From NCBI RefSeq assembly GCF_023921125.1, contig NZ_CP099466.1, positions 186,001 to 250,000 on the forward strand: 64,000 nucleotides of DNA, given 5' to 3'. This stretch comes from Arthrobacter caoxuetaonis. GTDB lineage: Bacteria > Actinomycetota > Actinomycetes > Actinomycetales > Micrococcaceae. The position numbers and the translations under genes were made by a program. The notes below the pieces were generated by a model, which was not told the origin of the DNA, ran no database searches, and saw only the letters and a list, made by a program, of their open reading frames with translations. Below are positions 54,332 through 63,695 of the stretch, one piece after another. Positions within the stretch are counted from its first letter, which is position 1, and the number at the start of each line of letters is the position of its first letter.

Positions 54332-55255
54332 TCAGGCCTGCCTGCGTTCCTCAGTTTCCTGGGCCAGCCTCGCGATGCGCTCGCGGGCAGAGCGCTCCGA
54401 CGGACCCATGTTGCCGAGCCCGAACCGGATGACCCGCAGCACCAGTTTCACGGGGACGTGCACCGGCAGCTTGAACGGACCCAGATGCGGGTCGCGGAGA
54501 CCGAGCAGTTCCCGGTGCCGCGGTTCCAGAGACGCGACGGCGCCGGCGAACAGAACGCGGTAGCCAATCAGCTGGTTCTTCGGCAGGGGCGGACGGCGGA
54601 GGAAGCCGACGACTTCCTGCACCGTGGGGCTGGAACGCAGCTCGGGGTCGAAGGCTGCCATCTGCTTCCGCAGTCCGGCGAGATCGCGGGGCGGGTTATC
54701 GATCCGCATGAGCTCACCGGCGGTGGCCCACTCGGCTACGTACGCATCCGGGCCGCCGGGAATGGGCCCGCCGAACTCCATGTGCGAAGTCAGGAACGCA
54801 TCCGTGAACGCCAGATGGACCCAGCGGGCGAGCTCGGGATCGTTCGCCGAGTAGGGCCGCAGCGTTCCGGAAGCATCCTCATAGGTGCCCTGCACCCGTT
54901 CATGCAGCCGCAGCACCCATTCCGAGGCGCTGCGTGCCGCCGTCGTATCCCCGTAGGTGACGGTGAAGATCCAGCGGATGGTGCCCGCCAGCCTGCCCAG
55001 CGGGTCCTCCTTGTAGTTGGAGAAGTCGCGGACGCCGGCCATCGCGCCCGGGTGCAGTGCCTGCAGCAGGAGGGCCCGGATACCGGCGATGATCGTCGTC
55101 ATGGACCCGTGGACTGCCCAGACTGCGGAGCCTGGCCCGTAGTAGCCGCGGTCGGTCCCGTTGGCGAGTTCCAGTTCCCATTCCGGGATGGTCTCGGAAT
55201 TGTTGCTGAATGTGCCGACCAGCTGGCGGCGCCAGGATTCAAGAAGCTTGCCCAT
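54332..55255 (-). CDS. DUF2236 (MpaB-like) oxygenase family protein
   Basis: 307 aa. AGIRALLLQALHPGAMAGVRDFSNYKEDPLGRLAGTIRWIFTVTYGDTTAA is the defining block, including the conserved QALHP histidine; WVHLAFTDAFLTSHMEFGG carries a further conserved His. This family includes latex-clearing protein-like and MpaB oxygenases that may bind haem. ATG at 55255; the SD is weak. Substrate unknown. Confidence 0.83.
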   Translation of the reverse strand: MGKLLESWRRQLVGTFSNNSETIPEWELELANGTDRGYYGPGSAVWAVHGSMTTIIAGIRALLLQALHPGAMAGVRDFSNYKEDPLGRLAGTIRWIFTVTYGDTTAARSASEWVLRLHERVQGTYEDASGTLRPYSANDPELARWVHLAFTDAFLTSHMEFGGPIPGGPDAYVAEWATAGELMRIDNPPRDLAGLRKQMAAFDPELRSSPTVQEVVGFLRRPPLPKNQLIGYRVLFAGAVASLEPRHRELLGLRDPHLGPFKLPVHVPVKLVLRVIRFGLGNMGPSERSARERIARLAQETEERRQA

Positions 55256-55313: not shown

Positions 55314-55934
55314 CTAGAAGGGTGGGAGGACGTCCACGTTCATGGGGGCGCAGGCATCGACCAGCCAGCTGAAACCGGCAGGACTATCGAGCGCGAGCTG
55401 GCTCACTGTGGACAAATCTTGTTCGGAAGCCCTGTCCCCGAAGACCACAGCGGCCTGGTTGCCGTTGAGCTGGTGGCTCATCCAGAGGGCACCGTCCAGG
55501 CCTCCCGCATGAGCGGCGGCCGCCCACTTGCGTGTCTGGGGGTAGTTCGCAGGCGGCGTGTCAGTCAGCTGTTTGGCCTGGAGGCCGAACCTTCGCAGTC
55601 CCTCACTGTGGAACAGGGCGAACGTCAGCTCCCGTTCAACCGCCACCTCGGAGATGATCCTGCCGCGGTAGGCCGCTGCCGGCAGCCGGGTGGGTGAACC
55701 CGCGGGCGTGTAACGCAGCAGGGTTTCGCACAGGGCAGTTTCCGGCGTCTGAGCGAAGTACAGGACGGGCACGGCTGGAGTGCCGAAGAAGTTGAACCGT
55801 CCCGCACCCCTGGGACCGGGATTGGCTTCCCCTGCTCGAAATGCAGCGCCGTGGCATCGAAAGAGGCGCGTTCCGGCGGGAAGGGGAACTGTGAGAAGAG
55901 AGCACTGGTCCGGCGGATCGGGCGTTTTGGTCAC
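55314..55934 (-). CDS. RES domain toxin (MbcT/ParT-like)
   Basis: 206 aa. The RES fold is recognisable: GTRLFRCHGAAFRAGEANPGPRGAGRFNFFGT, VLYFAQTPETALCETLLR, and RRFGLQAKQLTDTPPANYPQTRKWAAAAHAGGLDGALW. Characterised relatives attack NAD (phosphorolysis or hydrolysis) or ADP-ribosylate host enzymes. The conserved Arg, Tyr and Glu are all present, so it is probably active. Its GTG start overlaps the upstream antitoxin gene by four bases, the usual arrangement for this toxin-antitoxin class. Confidence 0.85.
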   Translation of the reverse strand: MTKTPDPPDQCSLLTVPLPAGTRLFRCHGAAFRAGEANPGPRGAGRFNFFGTPAVPVLYFAQTPETALCETLLRYTPAGSPTRLPAAAYRGRIISEVAVERELTFALFHSEGLRRFGLQAKQLTDTPPANYPQTRKWAAAAHAGGLDGALWMSHQLNGNQAAVVFGDRASEQDLSTVSQLALDSPAGFSWLVDACAPMNVDVLPPF

Positions 55935-56524
55935 GGTGCCTCGAAAGCATCCGCCGCCGCAGCCAGCACGAGTTCCACGTCATTAAGGTGATCCACCGGC
56001 CGGGTTCCTCCCGGGAAATACGTGTTGGGGTTCGTCAGCCAGGCCAAGAGGTCTACGTCCTCCCAGCCATTCTTCCGGGCCAGGCGGATCAGAGCAGGCA
56101 TGACCGAGCGGATCTGGCCGCCGGTTTCGGTGAATTGGAACGCGGGGATACGGTCGGAGTTGCCGCGGCGGTAGGTGATGATCTGGCCGTTGTTTTTGAG
56201 GTCGCCGGCCATGGAACGGTTGGTGCCTTTGGCTCCGCGCAGCTGCGCGACCTCCTGGCGGCTGTAGGTGCCGAACTCGGTTTCGATGTCCCGCAGCCAG
56301 TTCTCCCTGGCCTGAAGACTGCGGGCCAGCTGAGGTGAGACCTGTGTCTGGGCCGTTTCCATTGCCGGCGCCAGGTTCCGGCGGGCGACCCACTGCATCA
56401 CAACGTGGTTGAGTTCGTCCGCGGGAATCACCGAATCGGCCAGCACGGCAGCGACTTCCGGTTCCAGATGCCCCCGCACCCGGACGGGTACGGTTTCTGT
56501 TTCCTGTTCATGGGACACGCTCAT
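55931..56524 (-). CDS. Antitoxin, MbcA/ParS-Xre type
   Basis: 197 aa. The C-terminal segment (RLARKNGWEDVDLLAWLTNPNTYFPGGTRPVDHLNDVELVLAAAADAF) matches the toxin-binding domain that partners RES toxins. The central part (TYSRQEVAQLRGAKGTNRSMAGDLKNNGQIITYRR) resembles an HTH or nucleic-acid-binding region. An N-terminal extension of about 60 residues is longer than in minimal MbcA. It likely represses its own promoter and neutralises the toxin translated after it. Confidence 0.78.
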   Translation of the reverse strand: MSVSHEQETETVPVRVRGHLEPEVAAVLADSVIPADELNHVVMQWVARRNLAPAMETAQTQVSPQLARSLQARENWLRDIETEFGTYSRQEVAQLRGAKGTNRSMAGDLKNNGQIITYRRGNSDRIPAFQFTETGGQIRSVMPALIRLARKNGWEDVDLLAWLTNPNTYFPGGTRPVDHLNDVELVLAAAADAFEAP

Positions 56525-57356: not shown

Positions 57357-57390
57357 CCCTGGCCACGGCAGCGGACTAGACGCCAGCCCG

Positions 57391-60300
57391 CTACCGCAGC
57401 AGAATATCCACAGCCCGGGAACCGCCAGAAGACCCCACCGGAACCCGCTCCAGCGTGCCCGACCGGTTGGCGGCGTCGTCGCGCAGGATCTCCGTGACCG
57501 AACCCAGGAACCGGGACAGGTCCACCTTGTCCTCGGGAGCCGCGAGCAGCAGCTGGAAACCGAACTCGTGCAGCGCGTTGATGGACGCCTCCGCGAAGGA
57601 GAGCGACGACTTCACGAACGCCTCATCCATCATCACCGTGCCGTAGGTGCTGAAACCCTGGGACACGATGCCCAGCTGGTACGCCAGCGCGGAGGCCATG
57701 ATGAACGCCGTGAAACGCTGCCCCTCGCCGCCGGACATCAGCGACGCCTGCAGGTTGGTGAACGACTGCCCGTTGGCCAGCTTGTTGGTGCAGGTGATGG
57801 TCACGTGCGCGCGGACGTCCAGGACCTCGGCCCGCCAGCGGCGCTCCTGCGGATCCTTCAGTTTCTCCACCAGGCCCTCGAGCGCGGCGTACCGGGCGTC
57901 CATGTCCGCCTTGTCCTGCCGCACGCCCATCATCGGCAGCGCGTTCTTCAGCTCCATGCGGAACTTGTGCGCGTCGTCCGGGACGGTGGTCTTGACCTCG
58001 ATCTCCAGATGGCTGTCCACGTGGTACGGCACGCGGCGCAGCACCGAGTTCAGCGGCAGCAGCCGCGCGGAGATGCTGCGGCGTTCCTCGTCGAGCAGCT
58101 GCAGCAGGTCGCTGAAACGCTCGTAGGTGCGGTTGTTGAAGTATTCGCGGAACTCGGACTCGTGCTGCGGCAGGCCCTCGGTGACAATGTCCTCGTACCG
58201 GCGCACGTATTCCTCGGCCGAGTCCACGGACGTGCCGAAGTCCGAGCCCCACTTCTCGCTGTACGTCTCGAACGTGCGCTCCAGCCGGGTGTGGGTTTCC
58301 AGCAGCGTCTTATCCAGCCGCGCGGCCTCGGTGAGCAGGTTCCGCTCCACCTGCCCGGCGGCGTCGTTCAGGTGTACGACGTCGGTGATCTCTCCAAAGG
58401 GGGCGAACAGCTCATCGAGCTGGGCTCGCAGGTCCTCCGCCAGGGCATCCGGTCCGCGGCCGGCCAGGGTGTCCCGGCGTTCGGTGGCAGCGGTGAGCTC
58501 GGCTTCGAGCCGGGCCAGGTCGCCCTTGAGCACACCGATCTTCTCGGTCGCGGCGGTGAGGTCCAGCTCTGCGGTGTCCAGTTCGAAGCGGATCTGCTCC
58601 AGGTCCGCGTTGGCATCGCGGGCTGATTCCAGGCGCTCGACGGCGTCGGCGACGGCGGCGCGCTGCTCGCCGGCAGTGATGTCCTCGAATTCGCGGGTGT
58701 CGGCGGCGACCTTGCGGACGGCGGCGAGCCGGCGGATCAGGTCGTCCTGCTCCGAGGCGTGCTTGCGGGAGACGACGTCGGCCTCTTCAAAGCTCGCGCG
58801 CAGGGCCAGCAGTTCACCGGCGAGGGCGGCGATCTTGTCCTTGTTGTCGAAGCCCAGGACGTTGTCCGAGGCCTTGGTGTGCCGGTCGTCCTTCTCCGTG
58901 GTGGAGGAGTTGCGCTTGACGGCACCGCCGAGGCTGACGCCGCGGGAAACTTTGGCGAGCTCGTCCGGGTTCTCGACGCACTCGAAGTCGTAATGCGCGG
59001 TGATCTTTCGGGCCACCCAGTCGCCCATGGCGGAGTCGTAGGTGCTGAGCTTGGTGATGAGGTCCCGAGGTCCCGGCTCGGACGGGCCGTCCACGGGAAT
59101 GCTCACGTCGATGCAGCGCAGGAAGCCGCGCAGGTTGGTTTCGCTGAGGTAGCGGGTGACGGCGGCCATGTGCTCGCCGGGAACCAGCAGTGCGGTGGAG
59201 AGCGGGCGGAGCACGCGTTCGGCGGCGGCACGCCACTGGCTGTGTTCGGCGGGGACGTCGATCAGTTCGCCGGCGAAGGGCATCTCGGCCTCGTCGATGC
59301 CGGTGGCTTCGCAGATCCGGGCGCGCTGTTCCAGGCTTTCCGGGCGGATGTTGCTGCGCCGGCGGCGGAAGGACGCAATCTCGGTTTCCAGCTTCGCGAT
59401 GGACCCCTTCAGCGCCCACGCCTCGCCGTGCGCGTCGGAGCTGCGCTCCCGCGCGGCGTCGACGTCGGCGTTCAGGGTCTTGATCAGCTCATTGGCACGG
59501 CTGCGGGCAGTGACCAGCCCGGCGGGGGAGAGGTCCGTGTCGATGCCGGCGGCGCGCAGGTCGGCGCGGAACGCGTTCTCGATGGTTTCACGGGAAACCA
59601 GCTGCGCCTGCGCGGCGGCAACTTCGCGTTCCAGGGTGGCGATCGCTCCGCCGCCCTCCTGCGTGTACCGGGCGGTGAGCGCGGCGACCTGCTTCTTCAG
59701 CTTGGCGCGCTGGGATTCGGCGGCCTTCAGCGCTTCGCGGCCGGTGGCGGTTGCGGAGGTGAGGCGGTCGACCTCGCGTTCGTGGCTGGCCAGCGCCAGG
59801 CGCCGGCGGTAGGCGGGCAGCCCGTCGGCGGTGAGGGCGCGGACCCGGTCCAGTTCGGCCTTGGTGGTGAGGAAGAGGCGGTGCTGGTCCGGGACGTTGG
59901 CCAGGTGGTCGCGCTGCTGGCGGGCGCGTTCGAGCTGGCGGCGGATGCTGCGCAGGTGGCTGAAGTCCTCCACGGCCTCGTCCGCGGCGGTGAGGGTCTT
60001 GGGGGTGTCCAGGACGTGGTTGCGGAAGAAGTCGTTGACCGTTCCGCCCAGGCCCTTGCCGGTCTGCAGGATGCGCAGCAGGCCAAAGGCCTTCTCGTCC
60101 TCCACACCCAGGGCGGTGCGGTACCGCTCGGCGAAGAGTTTGTGCGAATCGAAGATCTGCGCGCCCGGCAGCAGTGACTCAAGGGCACCCTTGGTGAACC
60201 GGCCACGCATGCCGGTTTCCAGGGCCGTGATGTCCAGGGGACGGTTGTGCACGGCGTAGAACCGGCCCACGTGGTGTTCGGTGCCGGTTGCGGGCAGGTC

Positions 60301-60714
60301 CATGAGCACGGAGAGGCTGGTGATTTGGCCCAGGCCGTTGTCGAAGGTGAGGCAGACGGCGGACCAGGTGGCGCCGGGGCGCTGGTAGGCGGTGCCGTCG
60401 CCGGCTTCCATGCCCTGGGTGCCGAGCCGGCCGCGCATGTAGGAGAACGCGGTGCGCTTTTCCTCGGCTGCGGTGCCGCCGTTGTTCTGCGCGGCTTCGT
60501 TCATCTTGGGCCGCGCGTCCATGACCTGCAGGATGGCATCGAAGATGGTGGACTTGCCGACGCCGGAGTCACCGGTGAGCAGCGTGCCGGCGCGGTCCAC
60601 GTGGATGGTGTGCGCGCCGTCGAACGTTCCCCAGTTCACGATCTGGATCCGGGAGAGCCGGTTCTGGCCGGGGTTGATCAGGTCCCCCATGGGAAGGGTG
60701 GTTTCGATGCTCAT
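57391..60714 (-). CDS. jetC: Wadjet SMC-like ATPase JetC (MksB-like)
   Basis: 1107 aa. Walker A LLTGDSGVGKSTIFDAIL at about residue 48, two long coiled-coil arms around a hinge, signature LMSGGEGQRFTAFIMASALAY near residue 985 and Walker B VMMDEAFVKSS near residue 1020. The size and the DUF3375-DUF4194 neighbours identify it as the condensin-like motor of Wadjet/Mks plasmid-restriction systems. It extrudes DNA loops to sense small circular DNA. It overlaps jetB by four bases. The next gene on this strand is the antitoxin 0.9 kb away, not jetD. Confidence 0.9.
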   Translation of the reverse strand: MSIETTLPMGDLINPGQNRLSRIQIVNWGTFDGAHTIHVDRAGTLLTGDSGVGKSTIFDAILQVMDARPKMNEAAQNNGGTAAEEKRTAFSYMRGRLGTQGMEAGDGTAYQRPGATWSAVCLTFDNGLGQITSLSVLMDLPATGTEHHVGRFYAVHNRPLDITALETGMRGRFTKGALESLLPGAQIFDSHKLFAERYRTALGVEDEKAFGLLRILQTGKGLGGTVNDFFRNHVLDTPKTLTAADEAVEDFSHLRSIRRQLERARQQRDHLANVPDQHRLFLTTKAELDRVRALTADGLPAYRRRLALASHEREVDRLTSATATGREALKAAESQRAKLKKQVAALTARYTQEGGGAIATLEREVAAAQAQLVSRETIENAFRADLRAAGIDTDLSPAGLVTARSRANELIKTLNADVDAARERSSDAHGEAWALKGSIAKLETEIASFRRRRSNIRPESLEQRARICEATGIDEAEMPFAGELIDVPAEHSQWRAAAERVLRPLSTALLVPGEHMAAVTRYLSETNLRGFLRCIDVSIPVDGPSEPGPRDLITKLSTYDSAMGDWVARKITAHYDFECVENPDELAKVSRGVSLGGAVKRNSSTTEKDDRHTKASDNVLGFDNKDKIAALAGELLALRASFEEADVVSRKHASEQDDLIRRLAAVRKVAADTREFEDITAGEQRAAVADAVERLESARDANADLEQIRFELDTAELDLTAATEKIGVLKGDLARLEAELTAATERRDTLAGRGPDALAEDLRAQLDELFAPFGEITDVVHLNDAAGQVERNLLTEAARLDKTLLETHTRLERTFETYSEKWGSDFGTSVDSAEEYVRRYEDIVTEGLPQHESEFREYFNNRTYERFSDLLQLLDEERRSISARLLPLNSVLRRVPYHVDSHLEIEVKTTVPDDAHKFRMELKNALPMMGVRQDKADMDARYAALEGLVEKLKDPQERRWRAEVLDVRAHVTITCTNKLANGQSFTNLQASLMSGGEGQRFTAFIMASALAYQLGIVSQGFSTYGTVMMDEAFVKSSLSFAEASINALHEFGFQLLLAAPEDKVDLSRFLGSVTEILRDDAANRSGTLERVPVGSSGGSRAVDILLR

Positions 60715-61448
60715 GCCGGCTCCTCGCCGTCGTGCTCTGTTTCAGTGACCGCGTTCTCGGGCGCATCCGGCTCCGCCGGGGCCTCGGTCAGCGAGTTCAT
60801 GTAGGTGATGATGTCGCCGATGTGCTCGTACGGCAGGGCCAGCGGCAGCGCGTTGGAGATGACCCAAACGTCGTCGAGCTCGGTGGGCAGCAGCAGGCGG
60901 CGTTCGGTGACGAGCTTGCGGACCGCGGCGTCGGCCAGGTCTTCCACACCCTTGGCGTCGTGCGCCTGCGGGTCCACGTACTGCTCGAGGACGTCGATGA
61001 TGTCCTGCCGGGCGATGGTGGCCTCGTTGCCGGTGCCCGAGTGGCGGTCCAGGACCAGGCGCATGCGCAGCAGCAGCAGGGTTTCCTCGCGGGTCATTTC
61101 GCGCTGGCGCTGCAGGGCGGTGGTGTGCGGTTCGGCCATCTCGACCGGGCGCAGCAGCGCGACCTTGTGGTCCTCGTCGACGACCAGTTCCAGGAACAGT
61201 TCGCTCAGCCGGACGCGCAGCTGCTCCTGGTTATCCACCACGGTGTTGTACACGTTGTCCGAGGAGTTGGCGTCCAGGTACGGGCCGCGCAGCAGCCGGA
61301 TGAGGGCCTGGCGCAGCTTCAGCGGCAGGGTGCCGGTGTCGCCGGGGAACAGTTCCGGGCCGTCGATCAGGACGTCGCGGGCAGGCTCGGGGTAGTCCTC
61401 TTCCAACTCATCGTTGTCGAAGTCTTCGGCGGTGGGGTTTTCGATCAT
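60711..61448 (-). CDS. jetB: Wadjet kleisin-associated protein JetB (DUF4194, MksE-like)
   Basis: 245 aa. The core (LRQALIRLLRGPYLDANSSDNVYNTVVDNQEQLRVRLSELFLELVVDEDHKVALLRPVEM and TREETLLLLRMRLVLDRHSG) matches DUF4194, a winged-helix family equivalent to MksE/MukE. It overlaps jetA and jetC by four bases on each side, so the three proteins are co-translated. Confidence 0.9.
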   Translation of the reverse strand: MIENPTAEDFDNDELEEDYPEPARDVLIDGPELFPGDTGTLPLKLRQALIRLLRGPYLDANSSDNVYNTVVDNQEQLRVRLSELFLELVVDEDHKVALLRPVEMAEPHTTALQRQREMTREETLLLLRMRLVLDRHSGTGNEATIARQDIIDVLEQYVDPQAHDAKGVEDLADAAVRKLVTERRLLLPTELDDVWVISNALPLALPYEHIGDIITYMNSLTEAPAEPDAPENAVTETEHDGEEPA

Positions 61449-62911
61449 GGCTGGGGACTTTCGGCGACGGTGAGGACGGGCAGCACCGCGGTGCGGGAAC
61501 TACCGTCGATCTGGAGGAAGGGAATGGACTCGCTCGCGGGCGCCGCCGTCGTTCCTGTGCCCTCGGTGGGGGCAGCGGAGGCGAGGAGCGCGCGGATGCT
61601 GTTGAGGTGGCGGTGTTCTGCGGGCAGCTCGGCGAAGATCTCCGCGACGGTGGCGCGGCCGCGGCGGCTGCCGGCCCGGGTGATCGCGTCGCGCAGCACA
61701 CGCCGGTCGGCCTTTGGCGTGCGGGCGGCGCGGTGGATGTCTGCTTCGGTGAACGACGGCGGTGCGGGCAGCTTCCGCGGTGCGGCGTGCTCGGCGGGGT
61801 CGTAGCTGCGGACCATGCTGAGCGATTCGAACGCGGACGCGTAGAGCCGCGGTGCGGGCACGACTGCCGCGCGGCGGCGTCCGCGCGGTGCTTTGTGGAT
61901 GGCGGTTTCGGCGGTGCGGATGAGTTTGCGCAGCTGGACCGATTCCCGGTACTCGTCGCTCTGGACGTAGGTGTGCAGGCTTTCGGAGAGCCGGCCGTAG
62001 ATCCGCTGGATTTCGGCGGCCTGTTCGCGCATGTCGCTGATCATCCGGTACAGGGCCTGCCGGTCGCCGGGGGTCATGGCGTCGGCGAAGTCGCGTTCCA
62101 GAACCTGCGCGATGGCGTGCCGGAAGCGTCCCTGCTGGTCGGCGTCGTTCAGGAAGGCGGTGAAGCCTTCATAGGTGCGGCCTTCGCTGGTGCTGCGCAG
62201 GCGCTTGTCCGCTTCGAGGATTTCGCCCATGGTCAGGCCCTTGGAGGCCTGCGATTCGACCATTTCCTGGCGCAGGGTGTGCAGCATCTTCTCGAGGCCG
62301 TCGCGCATGCGCTTGAAGTCGGCTGGCAGGGCGGCCGCGAGGTCCAGGATGTCGCGGGCGGCTTCGACGGCGGTGTCATCGTCCAGGGGCGGGGGAGCGT
62401 CGCCGGCGCGGAGGGACCGGATGAGGTCTTCGCGGCGGGCGATCTCTTCTTCGAGGACGGCGATGCGTGCTTCGGGGTCGGGGTTGGATTCGTGCGCCAG
62501 GGTTTCCACGCTGGAGAGCAGGGTGTTCAGGCGGGAGGAGTTGAGGCTGGTGGTGTCGCCGGTGAAGCCGTCCAGGTAGGAGAGGAACCGGACGGCGGGT
62601 TCGGTGAGTTCGTAGACGAAGCGGCCGTCGGCGCGGGGGCGGGCCAGGAAACGGCGGGCCACCCAGTCATCGGCGTAGTTCTTGCCGGTCCAGTCTTCGC
62701 GCAGGCTCTGCCCACTGAGCCGAAGCTGCTGCAGGAAGGAGTCAGTGAGGCTGTGGAATTCGTCCAGGGGGATGCGCGGGCGGGTGCGTGTGAAGGCCTC
62801 GCGGAACAGGGCCAGGACCCAGGGGTTCGCGTTGGTGAGTTTCCAGCCGGGCGAGGCCTGTAGCCGCTGCAGCTCCGCCCAGCGGGCTACGGCGTTTTCT
62901 GTGAAGGACAT
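61445..62911 (-). CDS. jetA: Wadjet kleisin-type subunit JetA (DUF3375, MksF-like)
   Basis: 488 aa. NANPWVLALFREAFTRTRPRIPLDEFHSLTDSFLQQLR at the N-terminus, LTEPAVRFLSYLDGFTG, and ARRFLARPRADGRFVYEL match DUF3375. The middle (SQASKGLTMGEILEADKRLRSTSEGRTYEGFTAFL, then RQALYRMISDMREQAAEIQRIYGRLSESLHTYVQSDEYRES) continues the family pattern. First gene of the operon; kleisin-like bridge of the SMC complex. Confidence 0.9.
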   Translation of the reverse strand: MSFTENAVARWAELQRLQASPGWKLTNANPWVLALFREAFTRTRPRIPLDEFHSLTDSFLQQLRLSGQSLREDWTGKNYADDWVARRFLARPRADGRFVYELTEPAVRFLSYLDGFTGDTTSLNSSRLNTLLSSVETLAHESNPDPEARIAVLEEEIARREDLIRSLRAGDAPPPLDDDTAVEAARDILDLAAALPADFKRMRDGLEKMLHTLRQEMVESQASKGLTMGEILEADKRLRSTSEGRTYEGFTAFLNDADQQGRFRHAIAQVLERDFADAMTPGDRQALYRMISDMREQAAEIQRIYGRLSESLHTYVQSDEYRESVQLRKLIRTAETAIHKAPRGRRRAAVVPAPRLYASAFESLSMVRSYDPAEHAAPRKLPAPPSFTEADIHRAARTPKADRRVLRDAITRAGSRRGRATVAEIFAELPAEHRHLNSIRALLASAAPTEGTGTTAAPASESIPFLQIDGSSRTAVLPVLTVAESPQP

Positions 62912-63695
62912 GCTGCGCTTTCCGCCCGGAACGAAGGGGTAAAACGGGCCTGTCTGATTTTAGCTGAGTGTGGGGGAGGGGCGAGTATCAGAACCTGCTA
63001 TTCAGACGGGAGTTCCCCACGGTGTTTAGATACACCAAAGGTGTGGCACAACCCAAGTCTGAGATGGGCTCAAATCTCACCGCCACCGCATAGAAACCCC
63101 CAGAAAACGGCAGGGACGAGGGCCTGCCGTAGCAGTGATCCGACTACATTCCTGTTGTGCGGATTGACTGGCAGGGAAATGGTCACTGACTGCCCTTCAG
63201 GTTCAGCTGGCAGCAGCCCGGGGCCGTCAGAGCTGCGCACAGTGTCTGTCGGCTTTCTCCGAAGTCGCGGGCCGCTATGCATTAGAAACGCCGCTAAATG
63301 CGCGCTGGCGGGTGCCCGCGCTGCTCGGCATTGAGCTTCACGCGCGGTCCTACGCACCCTCGGTTCGTTGTTCGTTGTTCGGTGCTCGTTCGAGCTGGGC
63401 GGCTGGTGGGAGGACGCCCAACATGAACTCGCCCCGCGGATGCCCGTGTTTTGCCGCCATCGGGGACGTAGACGATCATTTCCTTGAGCGTGCTCTTGGG
63501 TAGCAGTGTTTCCTGCCCCCTGCTCTATCAACAATCTGTCGACCCGTACCGAGTGCTTCCAGCAGGATCGACTCATTGTGGTTGTCAAGTACCCAGACGG
63601 TATGTTGTCGATGACATGCTTGTATATTCGCTCATATCTAGACCCTTTGACGCGTCCAATCTCACTCCATTTGAGGTTCGGCTACGCTAAAGCGG
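62912..63695. other. Gene-poor region at the right edge
   Basis: About 780 bases with no supported gene. It holds the jetA promoter region, a hairpin around 63022-63040 (ACACC/GGTGT), a short GTTCGTT repeat at about 63364-63390 and, towards 63590-63680, lower GC than the rest of the window. Open frames on both strands are short, lack ribosome binding sites and look like remnants. Confidence 0.5.

What the first reader, a model, noticed from the sequence alone, without database searches (positions are those of the whole stretch)
57391..62911. Wadjet operon jetABC lacking jetD
jetA, jetB and jetC overlap by four bases each and look intact, but no DUF3322/DUF2220 nuclease gene follows jetC or precedes jetA in the window. 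The place of jetD is taken by a rightward small membrane-protein gene, a repeat array and then a toxin-antitoxin pair. JetD cuts the plasmid in known systems, so this locus is inactive, uses a nuclease encoded elsewhere, or uses another effector.
Basis: partly seen in the sequence, partly recalled or inferred. Interest (0 to 1): 0.76.

Follow-up and report, generated by a model that had tools for sequence, protein, structure and literature searches.

The report
Nuclease-free JetABC, core in Arthrobacter
Three genes that look like a plasmid-cutting defence system without its cutter turn out to be an intact DNA-folding motor kept by nearly every Arthrobacter-type genome examined, so it is probably a second chromosome organiser rather than a broken defence.

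Summary
The operon is real: jetA (61445-62911), jetB (60711-61448), jetC (57391-60714), minus strand, 4-base overlaps, intact, ATPase motifs present. JetD is absent from the flanks and, by two JetD probes, from the whole 3.93-Mb genome. This is not local damage. The window's JetABC belongs to a fully supported clade: of 115 genomes with it, 0 has a JetD match within 12 kb of jetA; of 100 loci read in detail, 0 has JetD. In the draws searched, the clade occurs only in the host's family. Its jetA is in 29 of 29 genomes of the host's genus (Arthrobacter by nearest named relatives) and 195 of 198 of a Pseudarthrobacter-type genus; the 3 misses are 63-68% complete. It is under purifying selection, and outside Arthrobacter sensu stricto it sits in a stable context and diverges like its neighbours. 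No JetD substitute is consistently linked. Best reading: a core, JetD-free SMC-kleisin-KITE complex working like Pseudomonas MksBEF, a second condensin. That function is inferred. Against a purely housekeeping reading: in Arthrobacter sensu stricto jetA borders a hotspot of unrelated defence systems and jetABC has low synonymous divergence. JetD-less JetABC operons are in print; my searches found no report of this core lineage.

The parts
61445..62911 (-). jetA / mksF-like kleisin, 488 aa (DUF3375)
   Evidence: PADLOC PDLC00447 4.5e-229, 759 bits; PF11855 8.1e-95
60711..61448 (-). jetB / mksE-like KITE protein, 245 aa (DUF4194; MksE)
   Evidence: PADLOC PDLC00485 2.7e-76; PF13835 3.4e-29 and PF21980 MksE 1.2e-6, both over their cut-offs
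57391..60714 (-). jetC / mksB-like SMC ATPase, 1107 aa
   Evidence: PADLOC PDLC00518 1054 bits; a profile of 16 clade JetC matches solved JetC chains 8dk2_C and 8as8_A over positions 20-1071 and 20-1067 of 1102
60550..60573 (-). Walker A of JetC (residues 48-55)
   Evidence: G48, G51, V52, G53, K54, S55 invariant in 16 of 16 aligned JetC; motif name recalled
57724..57735 (-). ABC signature SGGE of JetC (residues 994-997)
   Evidence: invariant in 16 of 16; motif name recalled
57622..57627 (-). Walker B acidic pair DE of JetC (residues 1030-1031)
   Evidence: invariant in 16 of 16; motif name recalled
57386..62983 (.). conserved block: jetABC plus 57-72 bp upstream of jetA, 94-95% identical in DNA to 7 close Arthrobacter loci
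   Evidence: block edges 57386-57395 and 62968-62983 in 7 of 7 (L061-L067); no blastn alignment of 120 bp or more directly outside on either side
   Evidence: no family over cut-off; short conserved stretch in 4 of 21 relatives, two of them apparently one genome
   Evidence: no array there by TRF
55931..56524 (-). putative antitoxin partner of the RES protein, context
   Evidence: no family over cut-off; not found in 21 of 21 related loci
55314..55934 (-). RES-domain putative toxin, context
   Evidence: PF08808 3.8e-18; not found in 21 of 21 related loci
54332..55255 (-). MpaB/Lcp-like oxygenase, the usual gene after jetC in this genus, context
   Evidence: PF09995 2.5e-49; found downstream of jetC in 18 of 21 related loci

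Best explanation
The operon encodes a complete, ATPase-competent SMC-kleisin-KITE motor of the Wadjet-I sequence families, from a lineage without the JetD nuclease. It most likely binds and loop-extrudes DNA, compacting or segregating the chromosome as a second condensin beside Smc-ScpAB, as MksBEF does in Pseudomonas aeruginosa, and does not cut plasmids. Shown here: intact genes, no JetD, one clade, near-universal presence of its jetA in two genera, purifying selection, neighbour-like divergence outside Arthrobacter sensu stricto, no conserved substitute effector in linkage. Inferred: loop extrusion, chromosomal role, absence of plasmid restriction.
For: JetD absent by two probes. Of 245 genomes of the family, 115 carry this JetA class (667-873 bits); 0 of 115 has a PF09983 match within 12 kb and 78 of 115 have none anywhere, while 29 of the 35 weaker JetA rows listed have one within 12 kb. 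0 of 100 clade loci read in detail has JetD, against 16 of 20 and 10 of 19 comparison loci (limits in Tried and rejected). The 21 clade rows are one side of a branch in the JetA tree (100/100) and the JetC tree (100); the jetD label needs 4 changes over 60 and over 57 rows. jetA prevalence 29 of 29 and 195 of 198, 187 of 187 near-complete. A, B and C full length in 101 of 101. dN/dS 0.05-0.27 among close relatives and 0.08-0.12 in 64 other loci, where jet dS is 0.77 against 0.61-1.11 for plausible neighbours and one neighbour is kept in 63 of 64. ATPase motifs invariant in 16 of 16. ScpA present in the host and 20 of 20 clade genomes. A review says P. [quoted passage not shown] another paper reports that loss of SMC, MksB and ParB together is lethal there (PMC7485682, passages).
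Against: No functional data. Between genera JetA identity to the window (44-50%) is lower than that of the ScpA kleisin (56-70%), so the complex evolves faster there; inside the genus it is the other way round (76-98% against 67-84%). In Arthrobacter sensu stricto jetABC borders a defence hotspot and has dS 0.13-0.26 against 0.44-1.26 for plausible control genes, which suggests exchange between species, though its higher GC3 (0.87-0.91 against 0.67-0.87 in controls) may lower dS too. 37 of 115 clade genomes have a JetD match elsewhere, some of them fragments. Prevalence was tested with the jetA model only. The joins of JetD-less groups may suffer from long-branch attraction (warnings).
Confidence: 0.62

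Rival explanations
1. Nuclease-free defence: JetABC still recognises invading circular DNA and silences or compacts it by loop extrusion without cutting, as proposed for Smc5/6 on viral circles.
For: Wadjet-I families. In 9 of 20 Arthrobacter s.s. loci a clear known or candidate defence gene or system lies within 6 kb upstream of jetA. Low synonymous divergence of jetABC suggests spread between species. The Smc5/6 idea is described in PMC10586767 (passages).
Against: Near-universal jetA, stable context and neighbour-like dS in 64 loci outside Arthrobacter s.s. are unlike a patchy defence system; the hotspot signs were not seen in the other genera sampled. A gene bordering a hotspot may simply be its fixed border.
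Confidence: 0.18
2. JetABC works with an unrelated nuclease or effector encoded elsewhere in the genome.
For: JetD is missing although JetABC is intact; a helicase gene with an RNase_H_2 domain lies upstream of jetA in 5 loci of 3 genera.
Against: No effector-like family is shared by the flanks of most genera: the widest is a generic ABC-ATPase family in 9 of 21 loci, 5 of 9 genera. The helicase gene was seen in 3 of 9 genera only. JetD homologues were not found in 17 of 17 genomes of the genus.
Confidence: 0.11
3. JetABC borrows JetD from a second Wadjet locus in the same cell.
For: 37 of 115 clade genomes have a JetD match elsewhere.
Against: 78 of 115 do not, including 17 of 17 of the host genus. 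In the 245 genomes, 29 of 35 listed weaker-class JetA rows have their own JetD within 12 kb.
Confidence: 0.03
4. Decaying remnant of a Wadjet system that lost jetD.
For: JetD cuts the plasmid in known systems; a jetABC without jetD was called probably inactive in Stenotrophomonas maltophilia (PMC11680222, passages).
Against: Full-length genes in 101 of 101 loci, purifying selection, near-universal retention of jetA, invariant ATPase motifs, long stem of the clade.
Confidence: 0.03

Closest known systems
MksBEF of Pseudomonas aeruginosa
   Same: Three-subunit JetABC-like SMC complex without JetD/MksG, beside Smc-ScpAB; [quoted passage not shown]
   Different: Different host; chromosomal role shown there, only inferred here; no direct sequence comparison or common tree was made
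Wadjet type I (JetABCD / MksBEFG / EptABCD)
   Same: JetA1, JetB1 and JetC1 families, gene order A-B-C with 4-base overlaps, solved JetC matched over most of its length
   Different: No JetD nuclease in the operon, in the genome or in the clade loci; jetA near-universal in two genera
JetD-less 'Wadjet' loci reported in Stenotrophomonas maltophilia and Paenarthrobacter lasiusi
   Same: jetABC without jetD, conserved in S. maltophilia; the P. lasiusi genome also has a Wadjet type I locus with jetD (PMC11680222 and PMC11719660, passages)
   Different: Listed there as defence and, in S. maltophilia, called probably inactive; PADLOC says MukFEB cases are reported as Wadjet 'other' (PMC9252829, passage)

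Membership tests
Wadjet type I | JetA, JetB and JetC of the type I families in one operon | tested here: met
Wadjet type I | JetD nuclease (CAP + Toprim domains) | tested here: not met
   no match genome-wide to PF09983 or to a full-length JetD alignment, none in the flanks
Wadjet type I | Restriction of small circular plasmids | not testable with these tools
   needs transformation assays
MksBEF-type second condensin | SMC + kleisin + KITE genes together, no nuclease gene | tested here: met
MksBEF-type second condensin | Intact SMC ATPase motifs | tested here: met
   Walker A, SGGE and DE invariant in 16 of 16
MksBEF-type second condensin | Kept beside Smc-ScpAB | tested here: met
   ScpA in the host and in 20 of 20 clade genomes; smc and scpB themselves not searched
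MksBEF-type second condensin | Chromosomal and widely kept in the lineage | tested here: met
   among 72,556 plasmid records only two large Arthrobacter ones (0.75 and 1.35 Mb) hold a relative over most of JetA
MksBEF-type second condensin | Role in chromosome folding or segregation | not testable with these tools
   needs Hi-C and deletion strains
MukBEF of enterobacteria | MukB N-terminal family over its cut-off | tested here: not met
   PF04310 14.9 bits, cut-off 23

The most novel reading that the evidence does not exclude
JetABC in this lineage is a standing DNA-shape sensor whose output is no longer a dedicated nuclease: in Arthrobacter sensu stricto it would act with, or recruit, whichever defence module occupies the adjacent hotspot (restriction, Lamassu, retron, Hachiman-like and others), while in sister genera it serves the chromosome.
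Probability: 0.05. Interest if true: 0.9.

Novelty: new member of a known kind. Interest (0 to 1): 0.56.

Why it matters
Defence-annotation software files such loci as incomplete or 'other' Wadjet. If this lineage is a JetD-free condensin, it is a clean case of an anti-plasmid type of machine turned into (or related to) a core chromosome organiser, with JetD-bearing relatives in the same family, sometimes in the same cell, as a natural control. It makes the question of what JetABC does without JetD testable in easily grown soil bacteria, and warns against counting jetABC alone as defence.

Tried and rejected
JetD encoded just outside the window or elsewhere: rejected. Remnant: rejected. Conserved replacement effector next to jetABC: none found in 21 clade loci of 9 genera; the families shared by at least three genera were generic ABC ATPases, aldo-keto reductases, a regulator, and a helicase gene with an RNase_H_2 domain in 3 genera; three further listed clusters look like antisense frames of that last gene. 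The RES toxin-antitoxin pair as replacement: rejected, not found in 21 of 21 related loci.

A mistaken probe: I searched the genome with PF11796, which the answer names DUF3323; the N-terminal JetD family of the finding is DUF3322. That search carries no weight, and I had no genome search left to repeat it (12 of 12 used).

JetB N-terminus as a test of lost JetD contact: a review mentions an IFDR motif at the N-terminus of JetB that contacts JetD. In my alignment, at an LxxGD site, 20 of 26 JetD-plus rows have W and 33 of 34 JetD-minus rows do not (my reading), but this mostly follows the tree, with L173 and L175 against it, and the JetB profile found no PDB chain at E 0.01, so it was not used.

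Limits and dropped rows. The match list was cut, so weaker JetA rows beyond the 35 listed are not counted. Some of the 115 jetA places lie near contig ends (for example G211, G052 and G076), so a JetD behind jetC could be off the contig. The named loci are the best 80 of 372 relatives found, assigned to the clade by JetC identity of 44-98%, not by tree; three (L088, L093, L134) hold only about 1 kb after jetC, where a JetD could be missed. My JetD HMM was seeded with 3 of 8 fetched JetD loci and iterated. 'Full length' means a profile envelope of at least 440, 170 and 1000 aa. Four of the 20 weaker-class family loci were chosen because JetD was missing, so 16 of 20 is not a rate. JetC was missing or too short in L162, L164 and L171, so the JetC tree has 57 rows, not 60. 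Two genomes (G827, G849) have jetA as two matches. In one search two of 15 gene pairs for L184 (49% identity, dS 0.13 and 0.19) look like antisense frames, and one control (dN/dS 2.1) likewise; the ranges I quote leave these out. dN/dS is a simple Nei-Gojobori count in GC-rich DNA. PADLOC was run on 40 hand-picked ORFs upstream of jetA in 20 Arthrobacter loci, not on all of them. L041/L064 and L042/L062 are apparently the same genomes, so counts over named plus unnamed loci include duplicates.
Full report
What is there. The window lies at C1:186001-250000 of a 3.93-Mb, two-contig genome. jetA (61445-62911), jetB (60711-61448) and jetC (57391-60714) lie on the minus strand and overlap by four bases each. 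Family searches name them JetA1, JetB1 and JetC1 of Wadjet with very high scores; JetB also passes the MksE model. A profile of 16 JetC of the lineage matches solved JetC chains over most of their length. Walker A, signature and Walker B residues are invariant in those 16 sequences (motif names recalled).

JetD is absent. The genome has no match to PF09983, a search in which C. glutamicum rang as a control, and none to a 14-sequence full-length JetD alignment at E 0.1; in that search 0 of 17 genomes of the genus, 0 of 13 other genomes with JetD-less loci and 2 of 2 positive controls rang. A search with PF11796 used the wrong family (DUF3323) and is not counted.

It is a lineage, not an accident. 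Among 245 genomes of the family, 115 carry a JetA scoring 667-873 bits; the next rows score 225 bits or less. None of the 115 has a JetD match within 12 kb, 78 have none at all, and 37 have one elsewhere, in some cases a fragment; of the 35 weaker rows listed, 29 have JetD within 12 kb. A few of the 115 lie near contig ends. At E 1e-100 the class appeared in 3 of 394 genomes of the taxonomic class, all three from the host's family, the host included; in 198 genomes of the order the high-scoring rows were 8, all of the same family. Of 20 fetched and 80 named loci (the best 80 of 372; Arthrobacter, Pseudarthrobacter, Paenarthrobacter and one Micrococcaceae genome), 0 of 100 holds JetD by my HMM, while 16 of 20 and 10 of 19 comparison loci do (4 of the 20 were picked as JetD-less, and 3 named loci hold only about 1 kb after jetC). 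With the window, 101 of 101 have full-length A, B and C. In the JetA tree the 21 clade rows form one group at 100/100 and the JetD label changes 4 times over 60 rows; the JetC tree agrees over 57 rows. Both trees warn of long branches where JetD-less groups join, so a single old loss is not claimed.

It is core. jetA of this class is present in 29 of 29 genomes of the host's genus and in 195 of 198 of a Pseudarthrobacter-type genus; the three misses are 63-68% complete, and 187 of 187 genomes at least 90% complete and at most 5% contaminated have it. In 64 named loci outside Arthrobacter sensu stricto (JetC 44-47% identical to the window; mostly Arthrobacter and Pseudarthrobacter by name, not all checked for genus), median dS is 0.77 for each of the three genes, against 0.61-1.11 for the plausible neighbouring genes; dN/dS is 0.08-0.12, and 0.08-0.35 for those neighbours; one neighbour is kept in 63 of 64 loci. 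Among close Arthrobacter relatives dN/dS is 0.05-0.27, and 0.27-0.49 against a more distant group of the genus. Of 72,556 plasmid records, 4 hold any match; the two over most of the length are Arthrobacter records of 0.75 and 1.35 Mb.

No substitute effector by linkage. Neighbours of jetABC differ between genera. Families shared by at least three genera within 6.5 kb are generic (ABC ATPases in 9 of 21 loci, aldo-keto reductases in 7 of 21), a regulator, and a helicase gene with an RNase_H_2 domain upstream of jetA in 5 loci of 3 genera (domains read in two of the five). The RES toxin-antitoxin pair behind jetC was found in 0 of 21 related Arthrobacter loci.

Results against a quiet housekeeping gene. 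In Arthrobacter sensu stricto the 5.6-kb block from the jetC stop to 57-72 bp upstream of jetA is 94-95% identical between species, and the DNA directly outside gives no alignment of 120 bp or more in 7 of 7 comparisons. jetABC dS is 0.13-0.26 there, against 0.48-0.68 for mpaB, 0.49-0.78 for the dsbA-like gene and 0.30-0.40 for a gene beyond the upstream variable stretch, and 0.44-1.26 for plausible genes around scpA in two of these relatives. jetABC has higher GC3 than those controls (0.87-0.91 against 0.67-0.87), which may lower dS, so exchange is likely but not proven. JetA is also more conserved than ScpA inside the genus (76-98% against 67-84%) but less between genera (44-50% against 56-70%). 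The 2.5 kb upstream of jetA is 10-18 points lower in GC than the operon in 16 of 16 named loci of this genus; in the 64 other named loci the difference is -4.5 to +1.1 points. In 9 of 20 Arthrobacter loci the 6 kb upstream of jetA hold a clear defence match: type II restriction-modification in the host genome, Lamassu, PDC-M68, PDC-S54, a type III-A retron with AbiU, PDC-S06, PD-Lambda-1 with a type IV restriction enzyme, a PD-Lambda-2_B relative, and HamB of Hachiman (the host's second gene matches a REase_II model in part, and its NotI match is below the Pfam cut-off). Six loci gave weaker or generic matches and five none. Ten control ORFs gave two generic hits, and ten ORFs upstream of jetA in other genera gave one, a helicase. 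My reading is that jetABC is the fixed border of an exchange site and shares in its recombination; the reading that it takes part in defence is not excluded.

How it most likely works. Established: JetABC senses circular DNA in an ATP-dependent way and JetD cuts it (PMC10586767, passages; also PMC10123090, passages). Without JetD the motor remains. The review says P. aeruginosa MksBEF likely arose by loss of JetD and contributes to chromosome organisation and segregation; loss of SMC, MksB and ParB together is lethal there (PMC7485682, passages), and MksB promotes long-range chromosome contacts in Borrelia (PMC10406323, passages). With near-universal presence, neighbour-like divergence outside Arthrobacter s.s. 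and intact ATPase motifs, a second condensin beside Smc-ScpAB (ScpA found) is the best inference. It is not shown.

Against the literature. Jet operons without jetD are in print: conserved in S. maltophilia and called probably inactive (PMC11680222, passages), listed in a table for P. lasiusi (PMC11719660, passages), and PADLOC states that MukFEB cases are reported as Wadjet 'other' (PMC9252829, passage). A survey finds Wadjet in 42% of Actinobacteria against 7% of others (PMC10482375, passages); whether JetD-less loci enter that count I could not tell. Searches for Arthrobacter with JetABC (0 papers), with Wadjet (5 papers) and with MksB (0 papers), for jetD-less wording and for Wadjet/Mks terms gave no paper that, from the listings and the passages I read, describes this as a core lineage; the library lacks most subscription journals. 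I therefore file it as a new member of a known kind (JetD-free MksBEF-like complexes), not as a Wadjet system, since the defining nuclease was tested and not met.

Noticed in passing
L032:278-2304 (0.3-2.3 kb past the window's right end); L041, L043, L045, L061, L067, L068, L071, L076 upstream of jetA: In Arthrobacter sensu stricto the low-GC stretch upstream of jetA is a hotspot of unrelated defence systems (restriction-modification, Lamassu, retron, AbiU, Hachiman helicase, PD-Lambda and candidate systems); loci there with large unnamed ORFs may hold new ones.
   Followed up: partly
L162, L164, L167 (three genomes of another family of the order): jetA and jetB, and in L167 also jetC, are no longer adjacent but separated by several other genes, with no JetD match in the three genomes: a dismantled operon whose subunits are still kept. 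jetC was not in the fetched stretch of L162 and L164.
   Followed up: partly
L043, 15403-16170; G131:C1:251256-251453: A truncated second jetA start lies on the far side of the PDC-M68 defence genes upstream of the intact jetA, as if the module's arrival duplicated the 5' part of jetA.
   Followed up: no
G010, G040, G064 (one genus) and G139; L152-L155: More distant JetABC operons without a JetD match anywhere in the genome occur in other genera of the same family.
   Followed up: partly
JetB N-terminus, window 61338-61352 (residues 33-37): An LxxGD motif has W after the first residue in 20 of 26 JetD-plus rows but not in 33 of 34 JetD-minus rows; it may mark the lost JetD contact or only ancestry.
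   Followed up: partly
L049:12549-16178, L051:13957-17460 and three relatives: A large helicase gene with an RNase_H_2 domain lies upstream of jetA on the same strand in three genera, 70 bp away in one.
   Followed up: no
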